IMG/VR virus record: IMGVR_UViG_3300030117_000011
Location: 1 to 22,455 of that record
Length of the DNA stretch: 22,455 nucleotides
From: a virus
Strand: one strand, 5' to 3'
In this document: positions 1-17,951 of the stretch, piece after piece
Position numbering within the stretch: position 1 is the first letter of the stretch
Layout of the letters: every line of letters begins with the position of its first letter
The notes under the pieces: model-generated
What the model was told of the DNA's origin: nothing
Seen by the model: the letters and a program-made list of their open reading frames with translations, nothing else
Databases searched by the model: none
Position numbers and translations under genes: made by a program

Positions 1-725
1 AAAATAAAGTTCACTATACTACTGATTATAGTATATTTAGCTATCTCAAAGGCAATAGAGATATAGTTAATAAGCACGTAAAAGATCTGTCCACTGAGAT
101 AGATGAACGAGATTTAGAAATACCTATTATTGTCAATGAAAAGATGGAAGTATGTGATGGTCAGCATAGACTCGAAGCATATAAAGCATTGGATAAGCCA
201 GTAGCATATATAATAAAAGATGGCTTAAGTTTAACAGATATTAGAAAGCTAAACTCTGTCAATAGAAAATGGACTATGCACGAGTATATGATGTCGCACT
301 TCAAGTTAGAAGTTCCTGATTATGTAAGCCTTGAATGGTTTGTCAGAACCTATGGCTTCAGTGTGTCAGACTCACTAGCCATGTTAAATGGCAAAGGGTA
401 CTGCAATACTCATGATATGAAATTGTTTAAGGAAGGTAAGTTTGTTATTCATGATTTAGAGAAAGCAAAAAAGACTGCCACCTGCATTGACTATGTTGGT
501 GAATACTTTGAGCATTATAGGAAAGTGTCATTTATCCGTGCCATGATCTCTGTAATGAATGATCCAGTATTTGTTTGGAGTATCTTTGAAAATAAGCTGA
601 AAAACTTTTCATCTAAACTTACTAATCAAGGTAGTCGTAATGATTTTATTCTTAATATTGAGAAGTTATATAACTATAAGACTTCACCTGAAAAAAGAAT
701 AAGGCTAAAGATTTATGGCAGTTAG
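1..725 (+). CDS. ParB/sulfiredoxin-fold protein, 5' end outside the window
   Basis: The frame is open from base 3 with no stop, so the gene begins before the window; the ATG at 144 is internal. The 47 codons before it are protein-like and include a GNRDIVNKHVKDL stretch and PIIVNEK, which run straight into the DGQHRLEA motif encoded at about 156-179. This layout (a 'NR..n..hv..L...i' segment, then 'PIivn' and 'DGQHR') is that of ParB-like nuclease/CTPase-fold domains found in many phages as stand-alone proteins. The rest, about 180 residues, is rich in charged and aromatic residues, and I recognise no second domain. The role could be DNA binding or an early host-takeover function; the sequence does not decide. 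It is the only gene on the + strand and converges on the late block, so it probably belongs to a different (early or middle) transcription unit. The stop is TAG at 723-725. Confidence 0.75.
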   Translation, partial: NKVHYTTDYSIFSYLKGNRDIVNKHVKDLSTEIDERDLEIPIIVNEKMEVCDGQHRLEAYKALDKPVAYIIKDGLSLTDIRKLNSVNRKWTMHEYMMSHFKLEVPDYVSLEWFVRTYGFSVSDSLAMLNGKGYCNTHDMKLFKEGKFVIHDLEKAKKTATCIDYVGEYFEHYRKVSFIRAMISVMNDPVFVWSIFENKLKNFSSKLTNQGSRNDFILNIEKLYNYKTSPEKRIRLKIYGS

Positions 726-872: not shown

Positions 873-1319
873 CTATTCACTGACACTTTTCATTTCTTGA
901 ACAAGTCTATCTGCCCTATTAGGTACTTGATTATACCACCTAGAGTCCTGCATTTGTAGTGCGGCTTCATTCCAGTCACGATTATCGACTGCTTTTTTCA
1001 TCTTGTGAAATCGAGAGAGTCTTGGTCTGCCCATATTGAACATCATGTTTGCCACAATATGTTGCACCTTGACTGGTAGCACATCAAAGTCTTGATAGAT
1101 ATGTTTACATTCCTCAATAGTGACAGATAAATCTTTTTCAAAAAGTTCATTAACTCTTTCTTCTGTTACTGGTGTGCCAACATCAGCACCATATTCTGTA
1201 TCCCATTCAGTGATAAGGTGTCCTATGCCACAAGTAGGTAAACCTAAATGATCTAGATAGATCTCGTTCTTAACACCTTCATCTCGTTTTAGTTCTTCTC
1301 TGAATTGTTCTATGTCCAT
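873..1319 (-). CDS. Endolysin, T4-type lysozyme (GH24 muramidase)
   Basis: This 148-aa protein cleaves the N-acetylmuramic acid to N-acetylglucosamine bond of peptidoglycan at the end of infection. The catalytic triad of T4 lysozyme (E11, D20, T26) is present with identical spacing as E14, D23 and T29, followed by GIGHL at 31-35. Other T4-like stretches are NMMFNMG (91-97) and SRWYNQVPNRADRL (126-139). T4 lysozyme is 164 aa, so this is a compact complete form. No signal peptide or signal-anchor is seen, so export should depend on the holin encoded directly upstream. Its ATG overlaps the holin stop by one base (TAATG), with an upstream AAAGGG as possible ribosome site. It is the last gene of the late block, just before the hairpin at 819-853. 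A cysteine (C30) sits next to the catalytic threonine, where T4 has isoleucine. Confidence 0.95.
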   Translation of the reverse strand: MDIEQFREELKRDEGVKNEIYLDHLGLPTCGIGHLITEWDTEYGADVGTPVTEERVNELFEKDLSVTIEECKHIYQDFDVLPVKVQHIVANMMFNMGRPRLSRFHKMKKAVDNRDWNEAALQMQDSRWYNQVPNRADRLVQEMKSVSE

Positions 1320-1714
1320 TACTTCTTACCCTTTATCATTTTAGCCGCTTGACCTACACCTTTAATACCAAAACTTGCAGATACAGCTATATATAATAAG
1401 TATTGATACCAGTCAGGTAGATCAGCAAGTACAGCAAAACCTTCTTTGACGTACTCTCTCATACTGGGTATAAAGACCAGTATGGCAGGAGCAAGTAGGA
1501 CAACCAAAGCAAATTCATCTTTCCAAGAATCATTGGAAGCATCTGCCATCTTGCCTTCCCAAGCCACCTCACCTGCGGCAACTTTCTCAGCGACAGAAGC
1601 TCGAGCCTTTGCCTCTGCAACTTTAGCTTGACCATCAGCTTTTGTTTTAGCAATCTTGTTTTCAAACCATGAACCTGCAAGATTAGCTATTGGTCCTATC
1701 AATGCTTGTATCAT
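1319..1714 (-). CDS. Holin, GTA-type three-transmembrane family
   Basis: This 131-aa protein probably forms the inner-membrane lesion that lets the downstream endolysin reach the cell wall. It starts with a short amphipathic segment (MIQALIGPIANLAGSWFENK), followed by an Ala/Lys/Glu-rich helix (about 20-58), the motif WKDEF (64-68), a hydrophobic segment (about 68-83, ending FIPSM), an 'EGFAVLADLPDWYQY' linker (91-105) and a second hydrophobic segment (about 104-121, ending ASFGIKGV), then a basic tail KMIKGKK. This arrangement (WKDE, then FIP, then PDWYQ, then ASFGI) matches the 'Holin of 3TMs, for gene-transfer release' family (PF11351), known from gene transfer agents and alphaproteobacterial phages. 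The adjacent endolysin supports the call. The ATG overlaps the preceding stop by one base (TAATG) and has a GAGGG upstream. Confidence 0.85.
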   Translation of the reverse strand: MIQALIGPIANLAGSWFENKIAKTKADGQAKVAEAKARASVAEKVAAGEVAWEGKMADASNDSWKDEFALVVLLAPAILVFIPSMREYVKEGFAVLADLPDWYQYLLYIAVSASFGIKGVGQAAKMIKGKK

Positions 1715-2856: not shown

Positions 2857-3213
2857 TTAAGTTGGTTCAGTTGGAAATGTTACGTTTGTTAATATACCAT
2901 CTACAACTTTAGGATCAGCCGTAGACGTTAAATCTCTAAGTGCCTGACGATAAGTTATCCACTCAGCTTTTTTACTGTCAGATAATTTACTGTCTGTTAC
3001 TTGTGTCCAATCACACAATGACAATCTAAAGTTTCTTTCTTGACGTAGTAAATTCATTGGATAGCCAGATTCTAACTCTGCCATTTTATCTGTTATTTCT
3101 TTTTCAGTTGGTTCTGTCTGTGATGTGTCTTTCCAATCAAGAACATCATTACTCATGTTCCATTCTGCATTTGGTCTAAGTGCATGTATTGCATCTGCTC
3201 TAAAATATGGCAT
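2857..3213 (-). CDS. Tail-fibre / tail assembly chaperone-like protein (Phage_tail_APC type)
   Basis: The protein has 118 aa. The C-terminal half carries the recognisable pattern R-x2-RN-F-x3-L-x-DWTQ (about 57-71), then KLSDSKKAEWITYRQALRDL (76-95), which is typical of the Phage_tail_APC family (PF16778) of presumed tail assembly chaperones. The N-terminal half (FRADAIHALRPNAEWN) is family-variable. Such genes commonly sit directly behind a fibre gene and are thought to help fold or mature the fibre; here the ATG overlaps the fibre stop by one base (TAATG), in line with that. Binding to this particular fibre is inferred from position. Confidence 0.8.
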   Translation of the reverse strand: MPYFRADAIHALRPNAEWNMSNDVLDWKDTSQTEPTEKEITDKMAELESGYPMNLLRQERNFRLSLCDWTQVTDSKLSDSKKAEWITYRQALRDLTSTADPKVVDGILTNVTFPTEPT

Positions 3214-6200
3214 TATCCAGCTATCTCCATTGCAACCATTGTTGATATTTCGCCACCTTCATTATAATTCAATCCATCACTGCCACTGGATCGTTTAATA
3301 TTAATTGAATATGTAACTTGACTTGTAGTACTAGGACTATCCAGTTTAACAAATTCCGAAGCATTTCTTTTTATACTTCCACTATCTCTTTTTGCAGTTG
3401 TATTTGCTATAGCAGTACTATCTCTTCTTAATTCAAATGCAAATTCACCACTTGTATTAGTACCACCTAAGTTATAACTCATACTACAAGTAATAAAAAC
3501 CTTACTACTTGTTGATGATGGTGTTATATTTATAGAATGAGCTTGAACAAAACTATTAGAAGATGTTGTTGCTACACCAGTTATTGAAGATTCTACAACT
3601 TGTAAAACTTTACCAGTAACAAGTGCTGAACCGTTAACTTGAAAACCACTTGTTGCATTGAGTGTTCCAGTAATTTTTGCACCAGTATTAGTAGTCTCAA
3701 ATTTAGTAGCACCATTAAATCTAATATCTACTTTATCATCATTAAACGCATCTAGCATAATCGTGCCATCAGCTTTTGATAATCTTATAGTCTGTCCTGA
3801 TATGACTAAATTACCTGACCCACCAGTTTCTCTAATAAATGAGTTTACACCATCTGTTCCTATCTCTAGTTGTCCTGAGTCAAAACTTATTTTGTTATCA
3901 TTACCAATAATTACATCATGATTAAATGTAGCAGTTCCTGCATCTGACATATCAAGAGTAAGTGCAGTTACCTCTGAGCCACCATCATTACCTTTGAATA
4001 TTATGTCTTTATCTGAAACTGCTGATTTAATGACAAAATCACTACTTGAATTAGCAAAACGACCAATTTCTGTGCCTGCATCATGTATTTGAACATTACC
4101 AACATCAGCATCAAGAATAATTGCACCTGCTACATCTACAGTTAAGTTACCACTTGAAACATCTATTTCTTGTCCAAGAACAGCAAGATTACCTATTGAA
4201 AATCCTGTGTCTGAAACTACAGAGCCAGTAACAGTTATACCACTTGAACTAGTTTCTAATTTAGTAACATTATTATGGAAAAGTCTTACTACACCATCTT
4301 CAGCACCAAATAAAATATTTTCATCTCCAGCAGTATTCATAACTTTAAAATCATCAGCTTGTATTTGTAAATTACCAGTGCCTGAATCTTTTATTATAGA
4401 GTTAGAACCATCATGATAAATTTCTAAATCTTGAGATGCACCAAGTTTAATCCTGCTATTGTCACCAAGAAGTAAGTTTGCATCATGATCTATGGTTAAA
4501 GCAGTTCTTGTTTCACTATCATCTTGAAATGAAAATACCATACTAGGCTCAACGGTATCCATATCTTCGCCACTAGCCATAGTATTTCTAAATGTAAGAA
4601 CTCTTGTGCCATAAAGTATATCAGTAAATCTGCTTACATCAGTATCGTTAATTCTTATGTTTGGCGAACCATCATTTAATACTAAATCACCAGTTACAGT
4701 TAAAGCACCACTACTTAATGTGCCAGTAGTTGTTATATTCTTATCTTGTCCGTCAAGATTACCACCTAGTTGAGGTGTGGTATCTTCAACAATATTTCCT
4801 ATGCCAGTTACATTTACTGCCTGAAATGAACTTCCATCAAAAAATTTAAATGTATTATCAGAAGTATTAAAGAACAAATCGCCTGCATCATTATTTGAAG
4901 AAGGGTCACTGCTACCTACTCTATATCTTTCAGCAAAACTTGTCACACCTGATAAATTAGATGCTACTGTATTTACATTAGCTATTGATCCACCAACACT
5001 ATTTACATTGCTTACTGCACCTGCAACTGTAGCAATATTACTTATAACACCTGAAGCATTTAGAGCAGATATATTTGAGTTTGCACCTGCTACTGTATTA
5101 ATGTTTGATATTGCTCCTGCAACTGTTGATATATTACTATTTGCACTTGCAACAGTAGATATATTGCTATTTGCACTAGCCACTGTATTAACATTACTAA
5201 TGGCACTAGCTACTGTGCCTATATCACTTGCATCACCTGCAACTGCAGTTACATTACTAGCAATACCTGCTACTGTAGTAACATTACTTGCAACTCCTGC
5301 TACTGTAGTTACATTAGCTTTGATACCCTCTACTGCATTTAGATTAGATACAAAATCAGATGTAGCCAATAAATCAAGATCAGCAACTATTGCAGTTGTT
5401 GCTAGTGTATTTAAGTCAGCAATAAAATCTGATGTTACTGCCGCCATATCTGTAACAAAATCACTTGTTACTAAGTTAATCTTACTTACAAATGTACTAT
5501 CAATTAGTGCCATATCTGCGGCAAAATCAGATGTAATCAATGAGGCTTTACCTGCTACTGTAGTAACATTACTAGATATACCTGCTACTGTGCTAACATT
5601 ACCTGATATTCCTGCAACTGTAGTCACGTTACTATCTATACCTGCTACTGTAGTAACATTGCCACTAATACCTGCAACTGTATTAATATTTGCGGTAATA
5701 GCTGATAAACTATTTACATTTGCTATTGTTGGTCCTGCTTCAGCCGCTCCAGTAGTAGCATTAAATCCTAATACTGTACCTTTTCTTGATGCAAGTAATG
5801 GTAATTCCATAGATACTGCATCATCAAACTCCTGCAACCTTATTGCCCGTGAAGCTGAGTCATTAAAATCTGACTGTATTGCAGTCACAGTATCTAACTC
5901 TGTATTTAACTTTGATATTTCAAAAGCACCTGAACTTGGAAAGTCTGTAGTTCTTGATAAAGGTATATCACGAGTGATGACAACTGTACTGCCACCAGTA
6001 GCACCAGTGACAGATGTTGTTACAGTTCCAGTAGAACCATTGCCACCACTTACAGTATATAATGAAGTATTACTTGTACTTGCATCAAAGGTACGTTCAG
6101 TACCATCAACAAAAACATTTAAGTCTGTTGATGCAGTAAAAAACACAAATGGTACAGCAAATGAGGTTTGAGTTGCTCCCTGACTTACTGTGTAACTCAC

Positions 6201-6233
6201 TCGTGGTGTATTTGCACTCAAAGCTATAGTCAT
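3213..6233 (-). CDS. Tail fibre with T7-type N-terminal attachment domain and repeat stalk
   Basis: This 1006-aa protein is the probable receptor-binding fibre. Residues 1 to about 165 form the T7 gp17-like virion-attachment domain: an N-terminal beta part with YTVSQGATQTSFAVPF at 14-29, then TVVITRDIPLSRTTDFP (83-99), FEISKLNTELD (104-114) and RAIRLQEFD (129-137). Residues 182-430 are tandem 10-residue repeats of the type NVTTVAGIxS, interrupted by a different repeat at 231-302. Residues 435-480 hold a small domain (AGDLFFNTSDNTFKFFDG) common in marine phage fibres. Two related beta modules follow, at about 595-625 (DLEIYHDGSNSIIKDSGTGNLQI) and 788-812 (LEIGTDGVNSFIRETGGSG). A Ser/Thr-rich tip (about 878-1006) follows. 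The start has AAAGG about 8 bases upstream. The protein is longer than T7 gp17 (553 aa), mainly through the repeats. The host receptor cannot be told from sequence. Confidence 0.92.
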   Translation of the reverse strand: MTIALSANTPRVSYTVSQGATQTSFAVPFVFFTASTDLNVFVDGTERTFDASTSNTSLYTVSGGNGSTGTVTTSVTGATGGSTVVITRDIPLSRTTDFPSSGAFEISKLNTELDTVTAIQSDFNDSASRAIRLQEFDDAVSMELPLLASRKGTVLGFNATTGAAEAGPTIANVNSLSAITANINTVAGISGNVTTVAGIDSNVTTVAGISGNVSTVAGISSNVTTVAGKASLITSDFAADMALIDSTFVSKINLVTSDFVTDMAAVTSDFIADLNTLATTAIVADLDLLATSDFVSNLNAVEGIKANVTTVAGVASNVTTVAGIASNVTAVAGDASDIGTVASAISNVNTVASANSNISTVASANSNISTVAGAISNINTVAGANSNISALNASGVISNIATVAGAVSNVNSVGGSIANVNTVASNLSGVTSFAERYRVGSSDPSSNNDAGDLFFNTSDNTFKFFDGSSFQAVNVTGIGNIVEDTTPQLGGNLDGQDKNITTTGTLSSGALTVTGDLVLNDGSPNIRINDTDVSRFTDILYGTRVLTFRNTMASGEDMDTVEPSMVFSFQDDSETRTALTIDHDANLLLGDNSRIKLGASQDLEIYHDGSNSIIKDSGTGNLQIQADDFKVMNTAGDENILFGAEDGVVRLFHNNVTKLETSSSGITVTGSVVSDTGFSIGNLAVLGQEIDVSSGNLTVDVAGAIILDADVGNVQIHDAGTEIGRFANSSSDFVIKSAVSDKDIIFKGNDGGSEVTALTLDMSDAGTATFNHDVIIGNDNKISFDSGQLEIGTDGVNSFIRETGGSGNLVISGQTIRLSKADGTIMLDAFNDDKVDIRFNGATKFETTNTGAKITGTLNATSGFQVNGSALVTGKVLQVVESSITGVATTSSNSFVQAHSINITPSSTSSKVFITCSMSYNLGGTNTSGEFAFELRRDSTAIANTTAKRDSGSIKRNASEFVKLDSPSTTSQVTYSINIKRSSGSDGLNYNEGGEISTMVAMEIAG
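4944..5690 (-). repeat. Tandem 30-bp repeats encoding the fibre stalk
   Basis: Within the fibre gene the DNA repeats with a 30-bp period (10 codons, consensus NVxTVAGxxS). The 20-mer cctgctactgtagtaacatt occurs identically at 5266-5285, 5551-5570 and 5641-5660, and many diverged copies lie between. A central stretch (about 5328-5545) breaks the period with an 11-12-residue repeat of the type TSDFxxDLxxL. Copies are diverged enough to be an old expansion, but the identical 20-mers would still allow recombination. Confidence 0.9.
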
Positions 6234-6268: not shown

Positions 6269-9200
6269 TTAATATCTATATCTTTCTTTTTCATCAGCTA
6301 AAGATCTAAAATCATCATCAAGACTTAATAACTGCAATATTGGTAAATTATAAGATAAAGTTTTCATACCTTCTTCAGTTCTATCATTTAGTAAATCATT
6401 AGCACCAACAACCCATTCTCTAATCATAGAAGGACTTGCACCTGCAAAACCAAATGCTGTATCCCACCCATCAGCTTTATATCTACCTTTTAACCAAGAA
6501 TCATCAGGATCATGTATGCCACTGGCAACTGCCACATTCAAAGCATGATAAAATAAATCACCATATAAAGCAGTAACACCTGAATGATCTACAACTCTCA
6601 TTAATAATTCAGGATAGTCTTTATTCTCAAACCACCAATCAGGTTTCTTTAGTGATAGTGTTACGTAACTCATAGCCATAAGTGATATTGCACCTGCTAA
6701 TCTATTTTGTTTAGCAGGATCTATCAATGCACCAAGAACTCTTGAGTGTGCCGCAAATGCAAAGTTATAGAATTGAAATGGCATTGCCATTGTACCTGAC
6801 TCTAGTCTTGCTACTGGAAAAGAATATGTACCATCTGCTCTTTTTCCTACTGATGCTCTTGGGTCTGGCTCTATGCCCATTGCTCTCATGTAGGGTCTCC
6901 ATTTCTTGTAAACAAATCCATCCATCATTGTTGGTCTATCAAATGCAGTAGCATGAATAATAGTATTTCTTGATGCAGTATTAAAATACGTTATTACTTT
7001 TGACTTTAATTCTCTTGCCGCTTTTGATGAAGTATCCCAACCACCTATATTTAATAGTGGCATACCAGTATCAGTTTCTTGCCATGCACCTTTTGTAAGA
7101 ATATCTTTAGCTAACTTTTCATCAATGCCATATCTTGCAAGTTCAATAACATCAAACTCATTCTTTCCATAGTTTTTTAGTTGCTCATAAAACTTTGGCA
7201 CTCGTATAGCCGCATCAACTAGTTTACCAATAGAAGTAATTGGTGCTAAACCATTCGCTTTATAAAACCAATTTTCTGCTTGTTCTAACCCCTTCTCAAC
7301 TCTACCAACTTGTACTGGTCTAAGATTATCATGCAACATTCTGTGATGTGCAGTAGGTCTAATCATCTCCAATGCTTCACCCATGTGCATAAGATCTCTA
7401 GCATTCATCTTCATCTTATCAAAGTTACCATCAAAAGCCTGAACTACACCCCTGAATACTTTGCCAAAGCCATGTTCAAATATAGGCATAGCAATAGTTT
7501 CAGTAAATGATGATATACCTGCACCATACAAATATGTCATACCACCAACTCTTTTTATATTTCTAGTAAATGCAGTATCCCATCTATGAGGCTCTCGTGT
7601 CATTTGTCCTGCAACTCTTTCAAAGTCTGCAAGAAAATCAGATTTAATTTCAGCTATTTGTTTATCAGTATATTTGTCAGCTTTCATTCTAACTTCCATA
7701 CCTTTAATAAGGCTACCAATATCTTCATCACCAAAACGTCTAGCAAATTCAATACGAAATCCCATTTTCTTAGAATACTCTGTCATAATCTTTGGATCAC
7801 GAATAAGAAAGTCCATGACTTTCCACTCAGGTATATCAGTAACACGCATCAACAAATGCTTACCTTTACCAATGCCTTCACCATAAGTATAAGGATCATC
7901 ACCTTTTTCAAGAATAGTATCTACTATTTCTTCTGCATACTTTCTAGCATTCTGTCTACCTTTTATAGTCTTAGCAATACCAACATCAACATAGCTATTT
8001 TGTGCTTCTTGCCACCTAGTAACCTTACCTTGCTCAATAAAATGTTCCATAAATATTCTAACAAGTTCTTCTTGTTTACTTGGATCTGCTATAAGCATTT
8101 CTTTATTATAATATAATGGAAACTTATAGTTTGCTCTTGTTGGTCTATACTCTTCGTAAAACTTAATTTTCTTTTTTAATTGTGCAAAATTTAATTTCAA
8201 TATCTCTTTCATTACTGGATCTTTTTCAGCAGTAATACGTTTAGGATAATCTTTTAATTCAGTTTCAAATTGTTTTACATTTGATTTAATTACAGTTCTG
8301 TCATGAAATAAATTACCATCTTGCGCTCGTTGATCTATATCTCTTAAAAAATCTTCAAGCCTTCTCATTGCCACTTTTTTGAACTCAGGTATATTATCAT
8401 AATATTTTCTACTCCAAGCAGGATTACCATTTAATATAGATAGATCTATAATCTCTTGAGCAAATTCATCATATGTAGGTGGCTTAGCATTTAAATTAGT
8501 AGCATGATTTACATATGTTTCTGTTTCTTGTCCAAACCTTCTCTTCAAAGATGTAGCTGTGCTACGATAATCTAAACCTGCAATAGTACCAGTACCTTTT
8601 GTTTTAGTATAAAATTCATTTAATAGCTTTCGCCATTCAACTTCAACTTGTAAACCTAATGCACCATATTGTGTTTGTGCCATATCGACTGATTGCACAC
8701 CTTGACCTAGAAAGTTTTTCTTTAGTGGTGTAACACCATTATATGCAATACCTGCATGGATTGCTCTTACATAACTAGGTGCTTCTTTAGCATCTTTACC
8801 ATCACGATACACATAACTTTGTATTCTACGAGCAGGTATAAAATGATTTATAAAGTTATATTTATCAAAAGCATTTTTAGCTAATCCTTCTTCACCCATA
8901 TAATCTGCATATTTACCTTTAATAGTATCAATATCTGTTTCATTTTTTAAAGGATTCTTTCTATTCTGTATTCTTGTTTTAATAGCACCAAATGAATTAG
9001 CTACACCCCTAGTGCCACCACCAAGCAAACCACCAAAAACAGTATTAGCTGTAACATTACTTATTACTTCAGCAGGTGTATTAAATGGATCAAATGGCGC
9101 ACGAATCAATTCACTACCAACACCAAACAATGCACCTAACTTAGCTGTTTCTTTACCTACACCAAAAGCTGACTTTGCTGACCAAGCCGCTCTCACACCT

Positions 9201-9640
9201 ACATTAAATACTGGTAACATAAAAGCTATATTAAGTGGATCAAGAACACCTGCCACTAAAGCACCACCGAAACCTGCTCTATCATATATAGTTCTATTCT
9301 GTTCTATTGCCTTTATGTCATTTAAAATATAATTATAATGATCTAAGTTTTTTGATCTAGCTAATTCATCTGCATAAGCATAAGCATTATCTGCAACCAT
9401 CTGTTGTTTAAAATCAAATGCAGGATCTTGTTCAACATCAGAAAAATTATAATACTCTACTGTTCTATTTGTTAATGGCAACCACTGATACTTTAGTCCT
9501 GACACCATAGATTCCATAAACGTAGGATCTGATGTTCCTTCATTATTAGCTAAACTTCTATAAATAGGTTTAAAGTTTATTAATGAATCAGGTGTAAACT
9601 CTTTACTAAAATCTTGTTGTCTAAATATTAAATCTGACAT
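6269..9640 (-). CDS. Internal virion / DNA ejection protein, gp16-like
   Basis: This 1123-aa protein probably belongs to the ejected inner core that carries phage DNA across the envelope. I see no catalytic motif. Residues 1-120 are charged and aromatic, residues 122-216 are glycine-rich and hydrophobic (FGGALVAGVLDPLNIAFMLP, then ANTVFGGLLGGGTRGVANS), resembling a membrane-inserting part, and a long, mostly helical, charged region follows. A second less polar stretch (VGGMTYLYGAGISSFTETIA) lies about two thirds along. The call rests on size (T7 gp16 is 1318 aa), the glycine-rich region and position after two other ejection-type genes and before the fibre, the T7 order 14-15-16-17. Its ATG overlaps the previous stop by one base (TAATG). 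The 35-base gap after it is the longest between it and the fibre, with nothing recognisable inside. Confidence 0.65.
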   Translation of the reverse strand: MSDLIFRQQDFSKEFTPDSLINFKPIYRSLANNEGTSDPTFMESMVSGLKYQWLPLTNRTVEYYNFSDVEQDPAFDFKQQMVADNAYAYADELARSKNLDHYNYILNDIKAIEQNRTIYDRAGFGGALVAGVLDPLNIAFMLPVFNVGVRAAWSAKSAFGVGKETAKLGALFGVGSELIRAPFDPFNTPAEVISNVTANTVFGGLLGGGTRGVANSFGAIKTRIQNRKNPLKNETDIDTIKGKYADYMGEEGLAKNAFDKYNFINHFIPARRIQSYVYRDGKDAKEAPSYVRAIHAGIAYNGVTPLKKNFLGQGVQSVDMAQTQYGALGLQVEVEWRKLLNEFYTKTKGTGTIAGLDYRSTATSLKRRFGQETETYVNHATNLNAKPPTYDEFAQEIIDLSILNGNPAWSRKYYDNIPEFKKVAMRRLEDFLRDIDQRAQDGNLFHDRTVIKSNVKQFETELKDYPKRITAEKDPVMKEILKLNFAQLKKKIKFYEEYRPTRANYKFPLYYNKEMLIADPSKQEELVRIFMEHFIEQGKVTRWQEAQNSYVDVGIAKTIKGRQNARKYAEEIVDTILEKGDDPYTYGEGIGKGKHLLMRVTDIPEWKVMDFLIRDPKIMTEYSKKMGFRIEFARRFGDEDIGSLIKGMEVRMKADKYTDKQIAEIKSDFLADFERVAGQMTREPHRWDTAFTRNIKRVGGMTYLYGAGISSFTETIAMPIFEHGFGKVFRGVVQAFDGNFDKMKMNARDLMHMGEALEMIRPTAHHRMLHDNLRPVQVGRVEKGLEQAENWFYKANGLAPITSIGKLVDAAIRVPKFYEQLKNYGKNEFDVIELARYGIDEKLAKDILTKGAWQETDTGMPLLNIGGWDTSSKAARELKSKVITYFNTASRNTIIHATAFDRPTMMDGFVYKKWRPYMRAMGIEPDPRASVGKRADGTYSFPVARLESGTMAMPFQFYNFAFAAHSRVLGALIDPAKQNRLAGAISLMAMSYVTLSLKKPDWWFENKDYPELLMRVVDHSGVTALYGDLFYHALNVAVASGIHDPDDSWLKGRYKADGWDTAFGFAGASPSMIREWVVGANDLLNDRTEEGMKTLSYNLPILQLLSLDDDFRSLADEKERYRY

Positions 9641-12600
9641 TATTTAGTTACTGCCTTATATATTTGTTTAGCTTTTCTTTTAAAGAATGGTGTTCTTGCA
9701 TCAGCATGAAAACCAAACAATGATGCTCTATCAAACACTCTATCCTCTGTCTGTGTTGATAATATAGTTCTTCCAGTTACAAAGTTACCATCAAATATAT
9801 TTTGATCGTCTTTTTCATAGTTATAAATTAAATGTGACCCTGCTCTTTGAAAATAAAAAGCTCTATGTTCAGGATTAGTTGTATTCAAAGCCTTTGTTAT
9901 ATTTCTCCAATATTCAACAAACTCACCTTCACCATATCCCATTTGATAAGCATGATCTAACATAGCCATCTGTTTTTCTACAGAAACTAAAGCAAAGTTA
10001 GGGAAATCTTTTACAAATTGTTTATAGTTTTCTGTCATCTTTGCAGTAAATATTGCATCTGATTCAGTTTTTTTAATAATAGTGCCATACTTTTCATCTA
10101 TAGCTTCTGCTATTCTTTCAAGAGTCATATCAGTTTTCATTAGTTGTCTTATTTCTTTTATTGCTTGTTGACCTTTAGGACTAATCATAGCCATCTGTGC
10201 ATCTGTAATAAACTTAACATTTAAACCTGCACCTAAAGATATAGTAGCATTTTTACCAGTGCCATCTACATAAGCTGTGCCATCATACCCTTCATGTCCT
10301 GCAACATATTTTACATTACGAACAAAATCATCTTGAACATCTATAGAATCACTTTCATCAAATACTTTTTCTAATTGATTTTTAGTTGCTTTATTTAAAG
10401 ATGGATCTCTTATAACTTCATCATAAATAAATTTCCAAGCAGGATTTGTAGTACCAGTATTTTGTAATTCAGGTAAATCCTGATTATTTAAAGTAACATT
10501 AGTGTCTACACCTATGAGATCTAATAAATATGATATACCTTTTGCTATAGGACTTTCTCTTGGTGGTATATTTTCAGATACAAACTTTTGATCGTTTATT
10601 AAATTATTCATAGGGTTGTATCCTGCATCTTCTAGTGCTTTATCAAGAGTAGGATTTACACCATAATATTGTTCTCCAAATCCTTTAACCATAGATGGTG
10701 GTGGACTTGTATTATCTAATATATTTATAATATCTTTTATTTGTGGCTCTGTTATTGTGACACTATGATAATTCTTTTCTAATATTCTTTTTTTAGTTTC
10801 ATCTGCTTTCATAGACATTTCAAAATCTACATCATCAGTATCTATTGTAATATATGTGCCATATTGTGACATAATAGGTTGCTTTGTAGTTATATCTGCA
10901 ACAATAAATGACATACGACTAGCACCTTTATTACGAGAGTCTGGTATTAATGCTACATTATCACCAATATTAAGTTGACGTTTATTAGATATAAGATCAC
11001 CTGCTTCATTTTCTACATAGTTATTTTCAACATCTAATCTGTTTTGTACATGACGTAAAAAGAATTTACGACTTGCATCATCTTTATATTTCATTATGTA
11101 ACTGTGTGGATTATGTATACCAAGTCTATTACCATATAAAGAAAATACTATACCATCATCTATTTCCATAGTATTACGAAATGTACTATTTAAACTTTCT
11201 ATAAACTTTTTTTTATCTAATCGTACTACTGTACCATTTGGTGTTGTTACTGTACCTTTATATAATTTATATCTAATATATTCTTTGTAATCACCAAAAA
11301 ACTCAGGAGGAATATCACTGCTTTTTAATACACTTTCTATAACATCTTTTGCCTCTGAGTTTTCATCTAATCCAAACTCAGAAGAATAAGATGATATTGC
11401 AAGATTCATTTTTTCTAAAGTTTCAGGTAAAGCTGTTGCTATTTCAAAAGCATCAAGAATACCCTCACTACCTACAATATCAACAACATCTTTTATATCA
11501 TTAAATCTTTCATATGTTGCTTTATACTTGTTAGGATATCTAGCATTACCTTTTGCATCAAAACCTATTTGATTCCAAAGATCATATATTCTTTCAGCCG
11601 CATTTGTTTTTGCTTGTGATGACATATTACCAAATATTGCTAAAGGTCTAGTATTCGTAAATAAATTTTCTAATGTTGAAGGCAGTACTGTATTCTTTTT
11701 TAAATATTGGATTGTTTTTTCATATTGTCCTTTATCCATTTTTAATAAAGATTGTATTGTTAATGGCTGTCCTATAATCATAGATATGCCTTGATTCAAT
11801 CCTTTACGATTATTTTCAGTATCTTTATGAACACCAATACCTTCAACTAAATTTTTAAACTTTTGTGCTTCATACATTTCTGCAAGATTAAGATTTTCTT
11901 TAGCAGCATCTCCTGCTCTATTACTTAAATATCTTGTAATGTAATCTCTATCTGAATAACTAAAGCCAAACTGTTTATTTAAACCTGCTAGATACTGCAT
12001 ATCTTCCATATTAATTTTATTTTTACTTACCCTTAAATATGCTTCTTGTATTGGTGATACTTTTCCAGTTTGAATTACATTTTCCATAATTTTTATTGCT
12101 TTATCATCAGTAGGATTCTTATCTATGATTTGATTTAATATGCCACTAGCACTATATATTTTCATCTTACGTCTAATTTCATTTATAGCAGGTGCTTTCA
12201 AACCATACTTTTTACCTTTAAGTTGCTGAATAGCAGATTCAATATAATTATTTGTTTCTTTGATATCTGCTGATAAATCATCTGCTTCTTCAATATTTTC
12301 ACCTAAACTTATATTTCTTAAATTATAATTAAGTGCTTCTAATGTTCTTACTTCATCATCAATAGCTATTTTTACATCTTCCATAGCTATACGTTCTTCT
12401 TCGTCAGCTACATCATTAAATATTTTATTACTATGATACACAGCTTGTTGTTCTATCTTGGATAGAAAAGCAGGTATAAAACTTTCCATTCCATTCTTTT
12501 TAAAACTATCTACATGACCTTTGATATAATCTTTAGAGGCTTCATCAAATCCATCTTTATCTAAAGCATAGGCTTGATGCAGTGTATTAAACTTTTCTTT

Positions 12601-12909
12601 TGCAAGATTCATTAATTTATTTGCATATCTTGCTTCTAATATAGATCTAGCTTTAACTTCTCCAACTTTTGAAAAGTTACCTTTTTCAAATGTAAAGTTT
12701 CCATGTCTATCAATAATAGGTAACGTTTTTGCAGTTTCAATATCTGAGGTAATGGCATCTCGTTTAGCTTCTGTAAAAGCTATATTTTGTAATGTTTTAC
12801 CAAAATCTGCTATGGCATTACCTAGTGATGTTGCACCAGTGTCAGCTTGTACTATACCTACTGGTTTATTTACAAATGATGTTTGTTTTGATTTTATAAA
12901 TTCTACCAT
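9640..12909 (-). CDS. Virion ejection protein with C-terminal lysozyme-like domain
   Basis: I place the start at the ATG 12909-12907 (1089 aa), one base after the stop of the upstream gene; a longer frame would need TTG at 12945 and overlap that gene by 35 bases. Residues 1 to about 850 are long helical charged sequence without a recognised domain, as expected for a T7 gp15/gp16-type core protein. Around 865-1010 lies a GH24-like muramidase: HEG (E873), AYVD (D882) and ATISLGAGL (T889) reproduce the E-x8-D-x6-T triad spacing, and QMAMLDHAYQMGYG (about 969-982) resembles the 'A..dfayN.G.g' core of that fold. The enzyme would cut peptidoglycan locally during DNA entry. In T7 the murein-cutting domain lies at the N-terminus of gp16 and is a transglycosylase, so the fold and the position both differ here. 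The end is coupled to the next gene by TAATG. Confidence 0.8.
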   Translation of the reverse strand: MVEFIKSKQTSFVNKPVGIVQADTGATSLGNAIADFGKTLQNIAFTEAKRDAITSDIETAKTLPIIDRHGNFTFEKGNFSKVGEVKARSILEARYANKLMNLAKEKFNTLHQAYALDKDGFDEASKDYIKGHVDSFKKNGMESFIPAFLSKIEQQAVYHSNKIFNDVADEEERIAMEDVKIAIDDEVRTLEALNYNLRNISLGENIEEADDLSADIKETNNYIESAIQQLKGKKYGLKAPAINEIRRKMKIYSASGILNQIIDKNPTDDKAIKIMENVIQTGKVSPIQEAYLRVSKNKINMEDMQYLAGLNKQFGFSYSDRDYITRYLSNRAGDAAKENLNLAEMYEAQKFKNLVEGIGVHKDTENNRKGLNQGISMIIGQPLTIQSLLKMDKGQYEKTIQYLKKNTVLPSTLENLFTNTRPLAIFGNMSSQAKTNAAERIYDLWNQIGFDAKGNARYPNKYKATYERFNDIKDVVDIVGSEGILDAFEIATALPETLEKMNLAISSYSSEFGLDENSEAKDVIESVLKSSDIPPEFFGDYKEYIRYKLYKGTVTTPNGTVVRLDKKKFIESLNSTFRNTMEIDDGIVFSLYGNRLGIHNPHSYIMKYKDDASRKFFLRHVQNRLDVENNYVENEAGDLISNKRQLNIGDNVALIPDSRNKGASRMSFIVADITTKQPIMSQYGTYITIDTDDVDFEMSMKADETKKRILEKNYHSVTITEPQIKDIINILDNTSPPPSMVKGFGEQYYGVNPTLDKALEDAGYNPMNNLINDQKFVSENIPPRESPIAKGISYLLDLIGVDTNVTLNNQDLPELQNTGTTNPAWKFIYDEVIRDPSLNKATKNQLEKVFDESDSIDVQDDFVRNVKYVAGHEGYDGTAYVDGTGKNATISLGAGLNVKFITDAQMAMISPKGQQAIKEIRQLMKTDMTLERIAEAIDEKYGTIIKKTESDAIFTAKMTENYKQFVKDFPNFALVSVEKQMAMLDHAYQMGYGEGEFVEYWRNITKALNTTNPEHRAFYFQRAGSHLIYNYEKDDQNIFDGNFVTGRTILSTQTEDRVFDRASLFGFHADARTPFFKRKAKQIYKAVTK

Positions 12910-12910
12910 G

Positions 12911-13351
12911 TTATGTAATACTCGCTTGGTATCCTGCTGTAGCAAAAGAACTAAACATTTTATATCTATATGCTCTACTTAGATTTCTTGCTTTTAATGT
13001 TGCCATTTGTTGTTGTTGTGAAAACTTAGAAAGATCTGCTCCTAGTTGTACATTTGCTCTTGCTACTGTAACTGCATTATTTTCTTTTGCTTTTTCTCTT
13101 AATCGTTTCAATGATCTATCACTACCTTCATCTCTACCCATTACACCTGCAAGACTTTGATTTGTATCTTTAAATGTTTGTAGTTGTGCCATGATTTGAT
13201 TATGTTCTTGTATACCTTGTAACTGTCTATACTTAGCTTGAGATTTAAGATTTCTTACAGCTAATGCACCTTCAGCTTTTACACCTCTTGCCGCACTCAT
13301 ATAACCTATACCTTGTATAGCCGCCGCCGCTATTAAAAAAGGGTTTGCCAT
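12911..13351 (-). CDS. Internal virion protein, gp14-like
   Basis: The protein has 146 aa. The N-terminus is small-residue-rich and hydrophobic (MANPFLIAAAAIQGIGYMSAARG), followed by a long helix rich in Ala, Gln, Lys and Arg (about 25-135: RNLKSQAKYRQLQGIQEHN, then GRDEGSDRSLKRLREKAKEN, then SKFSQQQQMATLKARNLS). A hydrophobic N-terminus followed by a Q/A-rich helix just behind tail tubular protein B is the pattern of T7 gp14-type ejection proteins (196 aa in T7), which form the outer-membrane part of the DNA conduit. Sequence identity to gp14 is not evident; the call leans on position and composition. The ATG overlaps the stop of the nozzle gene by one base (TAATG). Confidence 0.65.
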   Translation of the reverse strand: MANPFLIAAAAIQGIGYMSAARGVKAEGALAVRNLKSQAKYRQLQGIQEHNQIMAQLQTFKDTNQSLAGVMGRDEGSDRSLKRLREKAKENNAVTVARANVQLGADLSKFSQQQQMATLKARNLSRAYRYKMFSSFATAGYQASIT

Positions 13352-15627
13352 TAAAATGCCACCTCTACTATCATTCCATTAATCTGTAAATCCAAAGGAA
13401 AAGACTGTGATACTATAACTCTAGGATCACGACTATATCCTAATAATCTAAACTCTTCTTTACCAGTTACAGCAGATCTTTCCATAAAACCACCAGTTAC
13501 AGTATCTGTTGTATTCCTTATAACCAAATCTCTACTCGTTGATGTTGTACTTGGTCCTTGCACACTTACAGCAAGTGTTGAATGTAAATCTAATATGACT
13601 TTAGGTATTTGTCTAGGCTCTCCAGTTAAAGGTCCACCTTGTATAGCCGCATCTATTGGTAAAGTTTTAAGAGTAGGAGTAAAAGCATATCCTATAAATG
13701 CCTGACTTAATCCACTCTTTACAGCACTAGCATCTATTTCTGCACTTGCTACTGTAAACTCTCCTAAGAAATCATTACCATTTGTTGCTTTAACCACAGC
13801 ATTATTTGCAAAATGCGAACCTAAACTTCCAAACACACTAGCACTTCCACTAAATGTATTACAAAAATCCATAGGCATATCATCTTGGAACTCTTCTAAA
13901 AACAACTTAGTTGTACCTGAGCCATCATCTCTAGCACAAACTACAAACAATCTTTCATGTACTGCACATATACTATGCCATAATCCTTGTGTATCCCACA
14001 AACTCCAACCTGCTTTTTGATCCCCTCTTACAGAATAAAACACAGCTATAGTGCCATCATTATTTATTAGAAAAGCATAAGACTCACTTCTATTCAATGC
14101 ACCTTTGATAGATGTTTGCTGTACTGGATCTAGTATAAGATGTGGTGCAAGACCTGATACAGCCACAGATGTATATGCACTTTCTGCATCTGTAAATAAA
14201 AACTCTCTCAATGCACTACCAGTTTTCTGTATAAACAAAGTAGCACCATCAAATACTGTAGGCTTTACAAAGCTAGATCCAAAAGGTGTCTGCCTTCTAA
14301 TCTGTGCATTAGCAGGTGTTACTGGTTTGTTAGCAACAGTAGGAATAAACAACTCAGCACCAGTAGTGAATATTTGTAAATCTCTATTAGATACTAAATG
14401 TCTTATAGAAAAGATCTCACCAACATTAGCAGTAAGATCAAGAGCATCATTATCTTCTGCATCACCTATATCAAAGTTAAAAAATAAACCTGACTTGCTA
14501 CCCCATATGCCATCAGGCTGTGATAAAGTGCCACCAAACCAAAGTCTATTTTGATGAAATGTAACTGCGGCAGGATAACCACGAAGAGCAGAATAACTTT
14601 GCTCACTAAACTCAGTGGTAGCCGCACCAGTTACAATGCGAGGACTACCACCACCTATAGCACTAGATGTAGCAGTAGCACTACTACCTGCTGTAAATTC
14701 AAATGTATTTTCATCAGGAACAGCAGTAATAGTTCTTGCACCATTTATATTCGTATTAGCTATACCACCTACTGCACCTGATCTCTCAAAAGTAACTGAT
14801 GCACCAACAGCTAAACCATGTAAGGCTTTTGTTACTCTTACTGTGCCACTACCCTCAAAAGTTTTAATACTATCTATCTCAAGTTGCTGTCTTAATGTGC
14901 CACCTACAGTTGCAGTTACTTGTGTAGCACTTGTGAATCCAGTTATTCGACATCTTGTTTCACCTACTAATAAATCGACACCTACATGACTAGATACAAA
15001 ATAATCTGCTGACGTTGTAAGAGTAACACTACCAGTAGTGCCACTTGCAGTTATAGTCATACCTAATGGTTGAAAACTAAAGTATGGCTGAAATATATCA
15101 TTACCATCTCTTGATGTATCAAAGTTAAATGTAGATACAGTAAATGTAGTAAGACCAGTTCTTTCTAATATTCTAGTTTGAAATGTATTGTGACATATAA
15201 ACATAAGATCACCTTGCTGTGCAAAAGTAATCTCTTCAAGATATGATGCTGATGTTGTATTGACTAACCATGATTGACTAGTAAGCGACTGTATAGATGA
15301 CACAGTGCCATCACTAGGACTAATCTGAAATATCTCTATTCGTGTATTGCTAAATGCTATTATATATTTTTCATCATCTGAAAATATGAATGGTTCTATT
15401 CTTACACTTTGTCTAAGACTAGCTAGTGCTGTAAATGCAGGATTACTACCGAAGTTATGTAATCTTTTTGTACCAGTTCTTTTTTTTAATCCACCTTCAG
15501 ATCTAATAAAAAAGTTTCTTACCTGCTCACCTGCATTAGTATATACTTTTGTATCTGTCCTAGATGTCAAAGAAGGACTTATCTCTCCAAACTGAAAGTT
15601 ATTTAATGGCACTCTTACTCTAGCCAT
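13351..15627 (-). CDS. Tail tubular protein B (gp12-like nozzle)
   Basis: This 758-aa protein forms the nozzle of the short tail below the gp11-like ring. The N-terminus (FQFGEISPSLTSRTDTKVY, then VRNFFIRSEGGLKKRTGTKRL) is the hallmark of podovirus tail nozzle proteins: a 'GEiSP.l..R.D...Y..g...neN....GG...RpGt' pattern. Beta-rich sequence follows, including RLWFGGTLSQPDGIWGSKSG, where a new propeller blade probably begins. Length is close to T7 gp12 (794 aa). The ATG follows the stop of tail tubular A immediately (TAA-ATG), with an AGGAGA about 6 bases upstream inside the end of that gene. No disruption is seen. Confidence 0.93.
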   Translation of the reverse strand: MARVRVPLNNFQFGEISPSLTSRTDTKVYTNAGEQVRNFFIRSEGGLKKRTGTKRLHNFGSNPAFTALASLRQSVRIEPFIFSDDEKYIIAFSNTRIEIFQISPSDGTVSSIQSLTSQSWLVNTTSASYLEEITFAQQGDLMFICHNTFQTRILERTGLTTFTVSTFNFDTSRDGNDIFQPYFSFQPLGMTITASGTTGSVTLTTSADYFVSSHVGVDLLVGETRCRITGFTSATQVTATVGGTLRQQLEIDSIKTFEGSGTVRVTKALHGLAVGASVTFERSGAVGGIANTNINGARTITAVPDENTFEFTAGSSATATSSAIGGGSPRIVTGAATTEFSEQSYSALRGYPAAVTFHQNRLWFGGTLSQPDGIWGSKSGLFFNFDIGDAEDNDALDLTANVGEIFSIRHLVSNRDLQIFTTGAELFIPTVANKPVTPANAQIRRQTPFGSSFVKPTVFDGATLFIQKTGSALREFLFTDAESAYTSVAVSGLAPHLILDPVQQTSIKGALNRSESYAFLINNDGTIAVFYSVRGDQKAGWSLWDTQGLWHSICAVHERLFVVCARDDGSGTTKLFLEEFQDDMPMDFCNTFSGSASVFGSLGSHFANNAVVKATNGNDFLGEFTVASAEIDASAVKSGLSQAFIGYAFTPTLKTLPIDAAIQGGPLTGEPRQIPKVILDLHSTLAVSVQGPSTTSTSRDLVIRNTTDTVTGGFMERSAVTGKEEFRLLGYSRDPRVIVSQSFPLDLQINGMIVEVAF

Positions 15628-16215
15628 TTAACTTCTCCTATTAGAAATAAATCTTGACGTTACTAATTTCCTTGTTGTCTGTTGCTGTGCATCTATGTTT
15701 CTAGCTTTTGCCATTAATAAATTAGCTTTTGTTTCCATTAATTGCATCAAGTTATCATCTCTAGCTATTGATGTAGCAAAGATAGATGCCAATGAATATT
15801 GTAATGCTAATGAAAAATATGATGGAAAATCAACTTCATCTGCTCTAAATGTAAAGTCTGCTACTAAAGTATCTGATGTTGTGCTATCACTAAATACTTT
15901 ATCACCATATACTGTAAACTCTATTAAATTATCATTTATAGTTACACCATGTAATACTAATAAGTTTGCAGGTAATTGATGTGCTATATCAAATCTGCCA
16001 GTAGGTACATCAGATAATTGATTGAGTACAGCTTGTTCTGTAGCAAATCGCCATCTTGCTGTAGACAACATGGCTCTAACTGTATCCTCATACATATTAG
16101 TTGCTACTAAGGCTTCAGTACTAGAAGAGTCAAATGAAGTAATAGGTTCTGCACCAATAAGAACTAAGGCTCTTGATGCTATATCTATTGCTGAATTTGC
16201 TACTGTACTTGCCAT
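15628..16215 (-). CDS. Tail tubular protein A (gp11-like)
   Basis: This 195-aa protein forms the ring that links portal to nozzle. It opens with SAIDIASRALVLIGAEPITSF (about 8-28) and has ATNMYEDTVRAMLSTARWRFAT (about 38-59), the two stretches that define the podovirus gp11-like adaptor family (T7 gp11 is 196 aa). PTGRFDIAHQLPANLLVLHGV matches the 'yppdcL.v..v' part. No clear Shine-Dalgarno is visible before the ATG, because the 7 bases upstream lead straight into the hairpin at 16223-16242. Translation may therefore depend on the hairpin's state or on a transcript processed there. The last codons contain the ribosome site of the next gene. Confidence 0.93.
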   Translation of the reverse strand: MASTVANSAIDIASRALVLIGAEPITSFDSSSTEALVATNMYEDTVRAMLSTARWRFATEQAVLNQLSDVPTGRFDIAHQLPANLLVLHGVTINDNLIEFTVYGDKVFSDSTTSDTLVADFTFRADEVDFPSYFSLALQYSLASIFATSIARDDNLMQLMETKANLLMAKARNIDAQQQTTRKLVTSRFISNRRS

Positions 16216-17417: not shown

Positions 17418-17951
17418 TCAGCTACAAACTGGGCTATATTCTTTATTTACCAAAATTTTTTCGCCTTTGCAACGTACAAATCGCAAAACAGCAAAACCAT
17501 TAATCATTATAGGTTGTTCTATTACTTCAAAACCTATGTAATCTAACCATTGTAATGTCTTAGCATGGTCAGCAGGTACTACATTTTCTAGCTGATAATA
17601 CTTATTTTGAAAATAATCTACTACTGGCACACACCATTTAAGAAACTTTCTTTGTATTTTATATATATCATATGTGCCTAATGCCCATATTTTACCAATC
17701 ATATTATCCAAAATAGGATTGCAACCAAAGATAAATGCAGGTTGTCCATCAATCATAACACTAAAACTTTCACCATTTGGCTCTCTAATACCTGCCATCA
17801 AAGCACGAAAAGGAGTTGCACCATGTATCATGCACTCTCTAACATCTGCATCTCTCATATTATTTTGCAGATAATTTAGATGTTTTATATGTGATTTGAC
17901 TATAGGGTATCCATCATAGATACCCTCACCATTAAATTCTCTTGAAGCCAT
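17418..17951 (-). CDS. gp13-like GNAT-fold protein (Phage protein Gp13-like)
   Basis: The protein has 177 aa. It looks like the Gp13-like/DUF2833 family (PF11090), a GNAT-type fold that includes T7 gp13, an internal virion protein needed for assembly but not found in the mature particle. Visible points are the opening IKHLNYLQNNMRDADVRECM (22-41), PFRALMAGI (47-55), a central sheet SVMIDGQPAFIFGCNPI (64-80), the helix-turn 'GKIWALGTYDIYKIQRKFLKW' (86-106) and the end WLDYIGFEVIEQP (135-147), the GNAT-like 'WL..lGF'. The usual acetyl-CoA P-loop (R/Q-x2-G-x-G/A) is not evident, so enzymatic acetyl transfer is doubtful. It lies between scaffold and capsid, whereas in T7 gp13 follows the tail tubular genes. 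The ATG overlaps the end of the scaffold gene by 20 bases. Confidence 0.75.
   Translation of the reverse strand: MASREFNGEGIYDGYPIVKSHIKHLNYLQNNMRDADVRECMIHGATPFRALMAGIREPNGESFSVMIDGQPAFIFGCNPILDNMIGKIWALGTYDIYKIQRKFLKWCVPVVDYFQNKYYQLENVVPADHAKTLQWLDYIGFEVIEQPIMINGFAVLRFVRCKGEKILVNKEYSPVCS

What the first reader, a model, noticed from the sequence alone, without database searches (positions are those of the whole stretch)
9640..12909. Virion ejection protein with a C-terminal GH24-type lysozyme domain
The E873-x8-D882-x6-T889 triad and following glycine-rich turn are seen at the C-terminal end of a 1089-aa core protein. T7 carries a transglycosylase at the N-terminus of gp16 instead. Here a muramidase-like fold with a different position has apparently been adopted, and the window holds a second, lytic GH24 enzyme, so one phage would use two lysozymes of the same general fold for entry and exit.
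Basis: partly seen in the sequence, partly recalled or inferred. Interest (0 to 1): 0.65.

Follow-up and report, generated by a model that had tools for sequence, protein, structure and literature searches.

The report
Entry lysozyme on phage ejection protein
A marine short-tailed phage carries, at the end of a large protein predicted to be injected into the host with its DNA, a T4-lysozyme-like domain that probably cuts the cell wall on entry; this arrangement is already known from phages such as phiKMV, so this is a distant new member and not a new kind of system.

Summary
No single-sequence Pfam, PHROG or PDB search finds the domain. A family of 28 non-redundant relatives (26-98% identical) keeps E, D and T invariant. 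It matches T4 lysozyme and phiKMV gp36 well above shuffled controls, and its AlphaFold model has the T4-lysozyme layout: E at a helix end, D at the end of strand 1, T at the start of strand 2. Gene order (nozzle, small ORF, this gene, gp16-like gene, tail fibre) places it in the T7 gp15 / phiKMV gp36 slot. The neighbouring gp16-like protein has no transglycosylase, and a separate T4-type GH24 lysozyme (873-1319) serves lysis.

The contrast with T7 is correct but not new: phiKMV gp36 has a C-terminal lysozyme in the same slot, and SP6, K1E and K1-5 have similar enzymes. Separate entry and exit lysozymes are known from T4 (gp5, gpe) and phiKMV (gp36, gp45). Activity and presence in virions are inferred. 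One further observation: related phages lacking this domain mostly carry a zincin-like HExxH domain in the gp16-like protein; no record strongly carries both.

The parts
9640..12909 (-). 1089-aa protein in the T7 gp15 / phiKMV gp36 slot, C-terminal lysozyme-like domain
   Evidence: ORF; synteny with T7 and phiKMV; no single-sequence family hit
9706..10344 (-). Lysozyme-like (GH24-like) domain, about residues 856-1068
   Evidence: alignment A4; AF2 model; Foldseek; profile scores
10291..10293 (-). E873, predicted catalytic acid (T4 lysozyme E11)
   Evidence: invariant
10264..10266 (-). D882 (T4 lysozyme D20)
   Evidence: invariant
10243..10245 (-). T889 (T4 lysozyme T26)
   Evidence: invariant
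6269..9640 (-). 1123-aa gp16-like ejection protein without the N-terminal transglycosylase part
   Evidence: phrog_342 E 7.9e-28, aligned from profile position 216 on; no SLT hit; no HExxH
12911..13351 (-). 146-aa protein in the gp14 slot
   Evidence: position only; the Hodr ORF in the same position hits phrog_418 internal virion protein, E 1.5e-4
13351..15627 (-). Tail nozzle (gp12-like)
   Evidence: PF25675 E 7.8e-13; phrog_376 E 7e-104
15628..16215 (-). Tail tubular protein A (gp11-like)
   Evidence: PF17212; phrog_394
3213..6233 (-). Tail fibre
   Evidence: phrog_21412 tail fiber protein E 3e-27
873..1319 (-). Separate lytic GH24 lysozyme, 148 aa (E14, D23, T29)
   Evidence: PF00959 E 8.2e-10; PHROG T4 gp5/endolysin families; tblastn to T4 gp5 and gpe type lysozymes

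Best explanation
The gene encodes a large virion protein in the gp15 slot of a T7-type ejection module, with a divergent T4-lysozyme-like muramidase fused to its C-terminus. After adsorption the protein would leave the head with the other ejection proteins. Its C-terminal domain would cut the glycan strands of peptidoglycan (Glu as general acid, Asp and Thr positioning the water or substrate), so that the trans-envelope channel can form. In T7 that job is done by the N-terminal transglycosylase of gp16, which is absent from this phage's gp16-like protein. The free 148-aa T4-type lysozyme does the separate job of lysis at the end of infection. Shown here: the domain, its fold prediction, the invariant residues, the gene order and the missing transglycosylase. 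Inferred: packaging in virions, ejection, catalytic activity and timing.
For: E/D/T invariant in 28 relatives. AF2 pLDDT 77 overall and mostly 85-95 in the core, with the T4L helix-strand-strand layout at the active site; same in the full-length model. The eleven best PDB matches are structures I know or believe to be T4-lysozyme fusions (identity of the fused part from my own knowledge), and predicted phage lysozymes match with TM up to 0.59. Family members hit the lysozyme end (about 760-900 of 908) of phrog_2083 'internal virion lysozyme motif' at E down to 7e-8; phrog_2083 is the phiKMV gp36 group. 14 of 28 members hit PF00959 at E<=0.1. Profile 18.1 bits on phiKMV gp36C, 16.1 on T4 gpe; 4,900 shuffles reach at most 7.4. 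Synteny with T7 and phiKMV. Strong purifying selection on the domain, dN/dS 0.05-0.11 against the three closest relatives, versus 0.19-0.29 in the rest of the protein. Literature: PMC8954989, PMC5380687.
Against: The window sequence alone passes no curated family cut-off. hhalign probabilities against single sequences are low (19% for gp36C, 3% for the window's own lytic enzyme). The N-terminal 820 residues show no detectable homology to T7 gp15 or phiKMV gp36 by profile or fold, so 'ejection protein' is a synteny call. The TIGxGH turn of T4 lysozyme is TISxGxGxN here, without the His. No activity or virion proteomics data exist.
Confidence: 0.85

Rival explanations
1. The domain keeps the lysozyme fold but is not catalytic; it binds peptidoglycan or serves as a structural part of the ejection channel.
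For: The turn motif departs from GH24 (TISxGxGxN, no His), and close relatives of the phage do without the domain.
Against: E, D and T are all invariant across sequences down to 26% identity and dN/dS in the domain is 0.05-0.11 against the closest relatives; a dead domain would be expected to lose at least one of the triad.
Confidence: 0.08
2. It is a related clan enzyme with another substrate or activity (chitosanase GH46-like or pesticin-like).
For: A GH46 chitosanase and a phage GH46 protein appear lower in the fold lists; PF16754 Pesticin matches four members (best 6.8e-4).
Against: T4-type lysozyme families match more members and score better; pesticin is itself a muramidase of the T4 lysozyme fold (own knowledge).
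Confidence: 0.04
3. The 1089-aa protein is not ejected; it is a tail or baseplate component whose lysozyme acts from outside, or an enzyme used at lysis.
For: No sequence or fold link of the N-terminal part to gp15 was found.
Against: Exact T7/phiKMV gene order, a gp16-like neighbour, and a dedicated lytic GH24 elsewhere in the window.
Confidence: 0.06
4. The resemblance is chance and there is no lysozyme fold.
For: The motif alone is weak and single-sequence searches are empty.
Against: Independent agreement of the family profile, shuffles, PHROG hits and fold search.
Confidence: 0.02

Closest known systems
phiKMV gp36 (KMV36C domain; PHROG 2083 'internal virion lysozyme motif'; Krylovirinae)
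   Same: C-terminal lysozyme on the protein between the nozzle/small-ORF pair and the gp16-like core protein; the phage also has a separate lytic lysozyme (gp45); family members match the gp36 lysozyme end by profile
   Different: The window protein has about 190 more residues, an unrelated-looking N-terminal 820 aa, a longer lysozyme domain (about 210 vs 160 aa) and TISxGxGxN in place of the GxGH turn; different, marine lineage
T7 gp15/gp16 ejection proteins
   Same: Gene order and the need for a peptidoglycan-cutting enzyme during ejection
   Different: T7 has the enzyme as a lytic transglycosylase at the gp16 N-terminus; here it is a lysozyme-like domain one gene earlier, at the C-terminus
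SP6 gp36 and K1E/K1-5 virion lysozymes
   Same: Lysozyme carried by an internal virion protein of a podovirus (PMC5380687, PMC8954989)
   Different: Not compared by sequence here
T4 gp5 (entry) and gpe (exit) lysozymes
   Same: Two enzymes of one fold in one phage, one for entry and one for exit; best-known fold relatives
   Different: gp5 is a tail-spike hub protein of a contractile tail

Membership tests
GH24 / T4-lysozyme fold | Catalytic Glu-(x8)-Asp and following Thr, conserved | tested here: met
   Invariant in 28 sequences; D-to-T spacing is 6 here and 2 in other members, against 5 in T4
GH24 / T4-lysozyme fold | Lysozyme fold with E at helix end, D/T on the beta hairpin | tested here: met
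   AF2 secondary structure and Foldseek; prediction, not experiment
GH24 (Pfam PF00959) | Curated Pfam score cut-off | tested here: not met
   Window protein has no PF00959 hit; 14 of 28 relatives hit at E<=0.1, best 2.3e-4. So it is not filed under PF00959 itself, only as GH24-like
GH24 | Muramidase activity | not testable with these tools
   -
phiKMV gp36-type virion lysozyme (phrog_2083) | Lysozyme domain at the C-terminus of the protein before the gp16-like gene | tested here: met
phiKMV gp36-type virion lysozyme (phrog_2083) | Sequence match to the gp36 lysozyme end | tested here: met
   Five of the 8 relatives scanned one by one match it at E<=0.01 (7e-8 to 1.3e-3), 8 of 28 at E<=0.1; the window sequence alone does not
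phiKMV gp36-type virion lysozyme (phrog_2083) | Homology over the whole protein | tested here: not met
   Only the active-site stretch aligns; filed as same arrangement, not same full-length family
phiKMV gp36-type virion lysozyme (phrog_2083) | Present in virions | not testable with these tools
   -
T7 gp16-type transglycosylase | SLT/transglycosylase domain at the N-terminus of the gp16-like protein | tested here: not met
   Alignment starts at phrog_342 position 216; no SLT in the protein nor in 20 related records

The most novel reading that the evidence does not exclude
In this group of marine podoviruses the ejection module carries alternative, exclusive enzymatic cassettes. Phages either have a lysozyme domain at the C-terminus of the gp15-like protein, as in the window, or lack it and have a zincin-like HExxH domain inserted at varying places in the gp16-like protein, suggesting two solutions to one step of entry (or two linked steps).
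Probability: 0.2. Interest if true: 0.5.

Novelty: new member of a known kind. Interest (0 to 1): 0.3.

Why it matters
It adds an uncultured marine phage group, too divergent for current single-sequence annotation, to the list of podoviruses whose entry lysozyme sits on the gp15-slot protein. It supports the published view that the cell-wall enzyme moves between ejection proteins. The 28-row domain alignment gives a profile that could annotate the family, whose members otherwise return no lysozyme hit or only weak ones.

Tried and rejected
Single-sequence Pfam, PHROG and PDB searches gave nothing, and tblastn against 50,697 phage records with the window protein and two relatives gave nothing. 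hhalign between the domain and the window's own lytic lysozyme was not significant, and 7.6 bits in HMMER is at the shuffle ceiling. A recent duplication of the lytic gene into the virion gene is therefore not supported. Fold search of the full-length model for a gp15 match failed, as did profile comparison with T7 gp15. A genome-contig scan for the domain (host or prophage) found no relative. I considered an SLT domain in the gp16-like protein of the window or its relatives as the real entry enzyme and rejected it. A literature search for the nearest isolate by name found nothing.

Full report
What was checked. The window is a 22,455-base virus record held in IMG/VR. The finding's coordinates hold a 1089-aa ORF on the minus strand; the plus strand there is closed. 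E873, D882 and T889 are present as stated.

Anatomy. On the minus strand the genes run: terminase (PHROG match), portal (PF12236), scaffold-like ORF, capsid (PF19821), tail tube (PF17212), nozzle (PF25675), a 146-aa ORF, the 1089-aa ORF, a 1123-aa gp16-like protein (phrog_342), tail fibre, small ORFs, and a 148-aa lysozyme (PF00959, E 8.2e-10). This is the T7 order gp11-gp12-gp14-gp15-gp16-gp17 and the phiKMV order gp34-35-36-37-38. By portal, the nearest cultured phages are Pelagibacter phage EXVC031P Hodr (58%) and Methylophilales phage MEP301 (37%). A marine, SAR11-like host is therefore plausible but not shown.

Is the lysozyme domain real? The window sequence alone matches no family. Scans of viral contigs with the protein, the portal and the domain brought in about 100 relatives that carry the domain or its gene. 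Twenty-eight non-redundant domains, 26-98% identical to the window, align with E, D and T and the SxGxG(F/L)N turn conserved. A profile of these scores 18.1 bits on phiKMV gp36C, 16.1 on T4 gpe, 15.9 on T4 gp5 and 15.4 on phi-2 gp34, while the best of 4,900 shuffled lysozymes scores 7.4. Individual relatives match PHROG 2083, 'internal virion lysozyme motif', exactly over its C-terminal 760-900 of 908 positions, down to E 7e-8. Pfam Phage_lysozyme is the family that most members hit. The AlphaFold model (28-row alignment, pLDDT 77, pTM 0.71) puts E873 at the end of a helix, D882 at the end of the first strand and T889 at the start of the second, as in T4 lysozyme. The full-length model repeats this. 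The leading Foldseek PDB matches are receptor and other structures that I know or believe to contain fused T4 lysozyme, and predicted phage lysozymes are matched with TM up to 0.59. PDB E-values were no better than 0.015, so the fold match rests on the consistency of the list. Three-dimensional distances could not be measured because coordinates are not returned. Against the three closest relatives, dN/dS in the domain is 0.05-0.11, compared with 0.19-0.29 in the rest of the protein.

Function. Published work places the cell-wall enzyme of podovirus ejection on gp16 in T7, but as a lysozyme on the neighbouring ejection protein in other phages. PMC8954989 says that some gp15-like homologues, such as those of K1E and K1-5, carry lysozyme activity and calls domain swapping between ejection proteins thematic. 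[quoted passage not shown] aeruginosa peptidoglycan. phiKMV's own record calls gp36 'structural protein containing C-terminal lysozyme domain, part of the phage injection needle' and lists a separate lysozyme gp45 for host lysis. The window phage fits this: the gp16-like protein starts at profile position 216 of phrog_342 and has no transglycosylase. The simplest mechanism is a muramidase used at entry, with the free T4-type lysozyme used at exit. The enzyme activity, packaging and timing are inference.

How far it is from the known. The arrangement is the phiKMV one. Homology to gp36 is confined to the domain, and the N-terminal 820 residues have no detectable relation to T7 gp15 or to any solved structure. 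I therefore call it a new, divergent member of a known kind: same working principle and slot, not the same full-length family.

Side observation. Relatives with closely similar portal and nozzle proteins fall into groups with and without the lysozyme domain. Several that lack it carry a roughly 130-aa zincin-like HExxH domain in the gp16-like protein, at residue 300, 889 or about 1111 in different phages. The nearest Pfam family is MPTase-PolyVal, E 0.002 for one domain on its own, below its cut-off. Of 42 records with a gp16-like gene, 31 have the lysozyme domain, 8 the zincin, none both and 3 neither. In an independent set of 29 zincin-bearing records none has a strong lysozyme match and one has a weak one (E 0.0016). 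The counts are biased by how records were fetched and by shared ancestry, and many records are fragments. Zincin domains are already described as the commonest domain of phage-injected 'polyvalent proteins', where they are thought to process the polypeptide (PMC5512222), so this need not be an alternative cell-wall enzyme.

Noticed in passing
L175:639-1073, L172:3370-3777, L178:5404-5811, L171:5768-6250, L182-L213; Hodr L008:29503-29880: Zincin-like HExxH domain inserted at varying positions in gp16-like ejection proteins of related phages that lack the gp15-slot lysozyme domain; 0 of 42 records with a gp16-like gene carry both, 1 weak candidate among 29 further records. Hodr keeps the domain but has no HExxH.
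   Followed up: partly
gp16-like protein, residues about 233-253 in window numbering (window 6269-9640); inserts in L110, L118, L130, L134, L148: A second insertion hot spot: relatives with the lysozyme domain carry 135-243 extra residues of unknown type here (no convincing Pfam hit).
   Followed up: partly
L010:9501-11642: In small Vibrio phages related by portal, the gene in the same slot is annotated 'putative lytic transglycosylase' and hits phrog_1044 endolysin: possibly a further enzyme type in this slot.
   Followed up: no
window 17418-17951: 177-aa ORF between scaffold-like and capsid genes hits phrog_308 'internal virion protein', E 1.1e-27, away from the other ejection genes.
   Followed up: no
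window 1319-1714: 131-aa ORF next to the lytic lysozyme, phrog_2524 unknown function, weakly similar over 48 residues to Hodr's predicted holin: candidate holin.
   Followed up: partly
window 3-725: Plus-strand ORF open at the window's start with a DGQHR stretch resembling ParB-like nuclease/DGQHR domains (read by eye, not searched).
   Followed up: no
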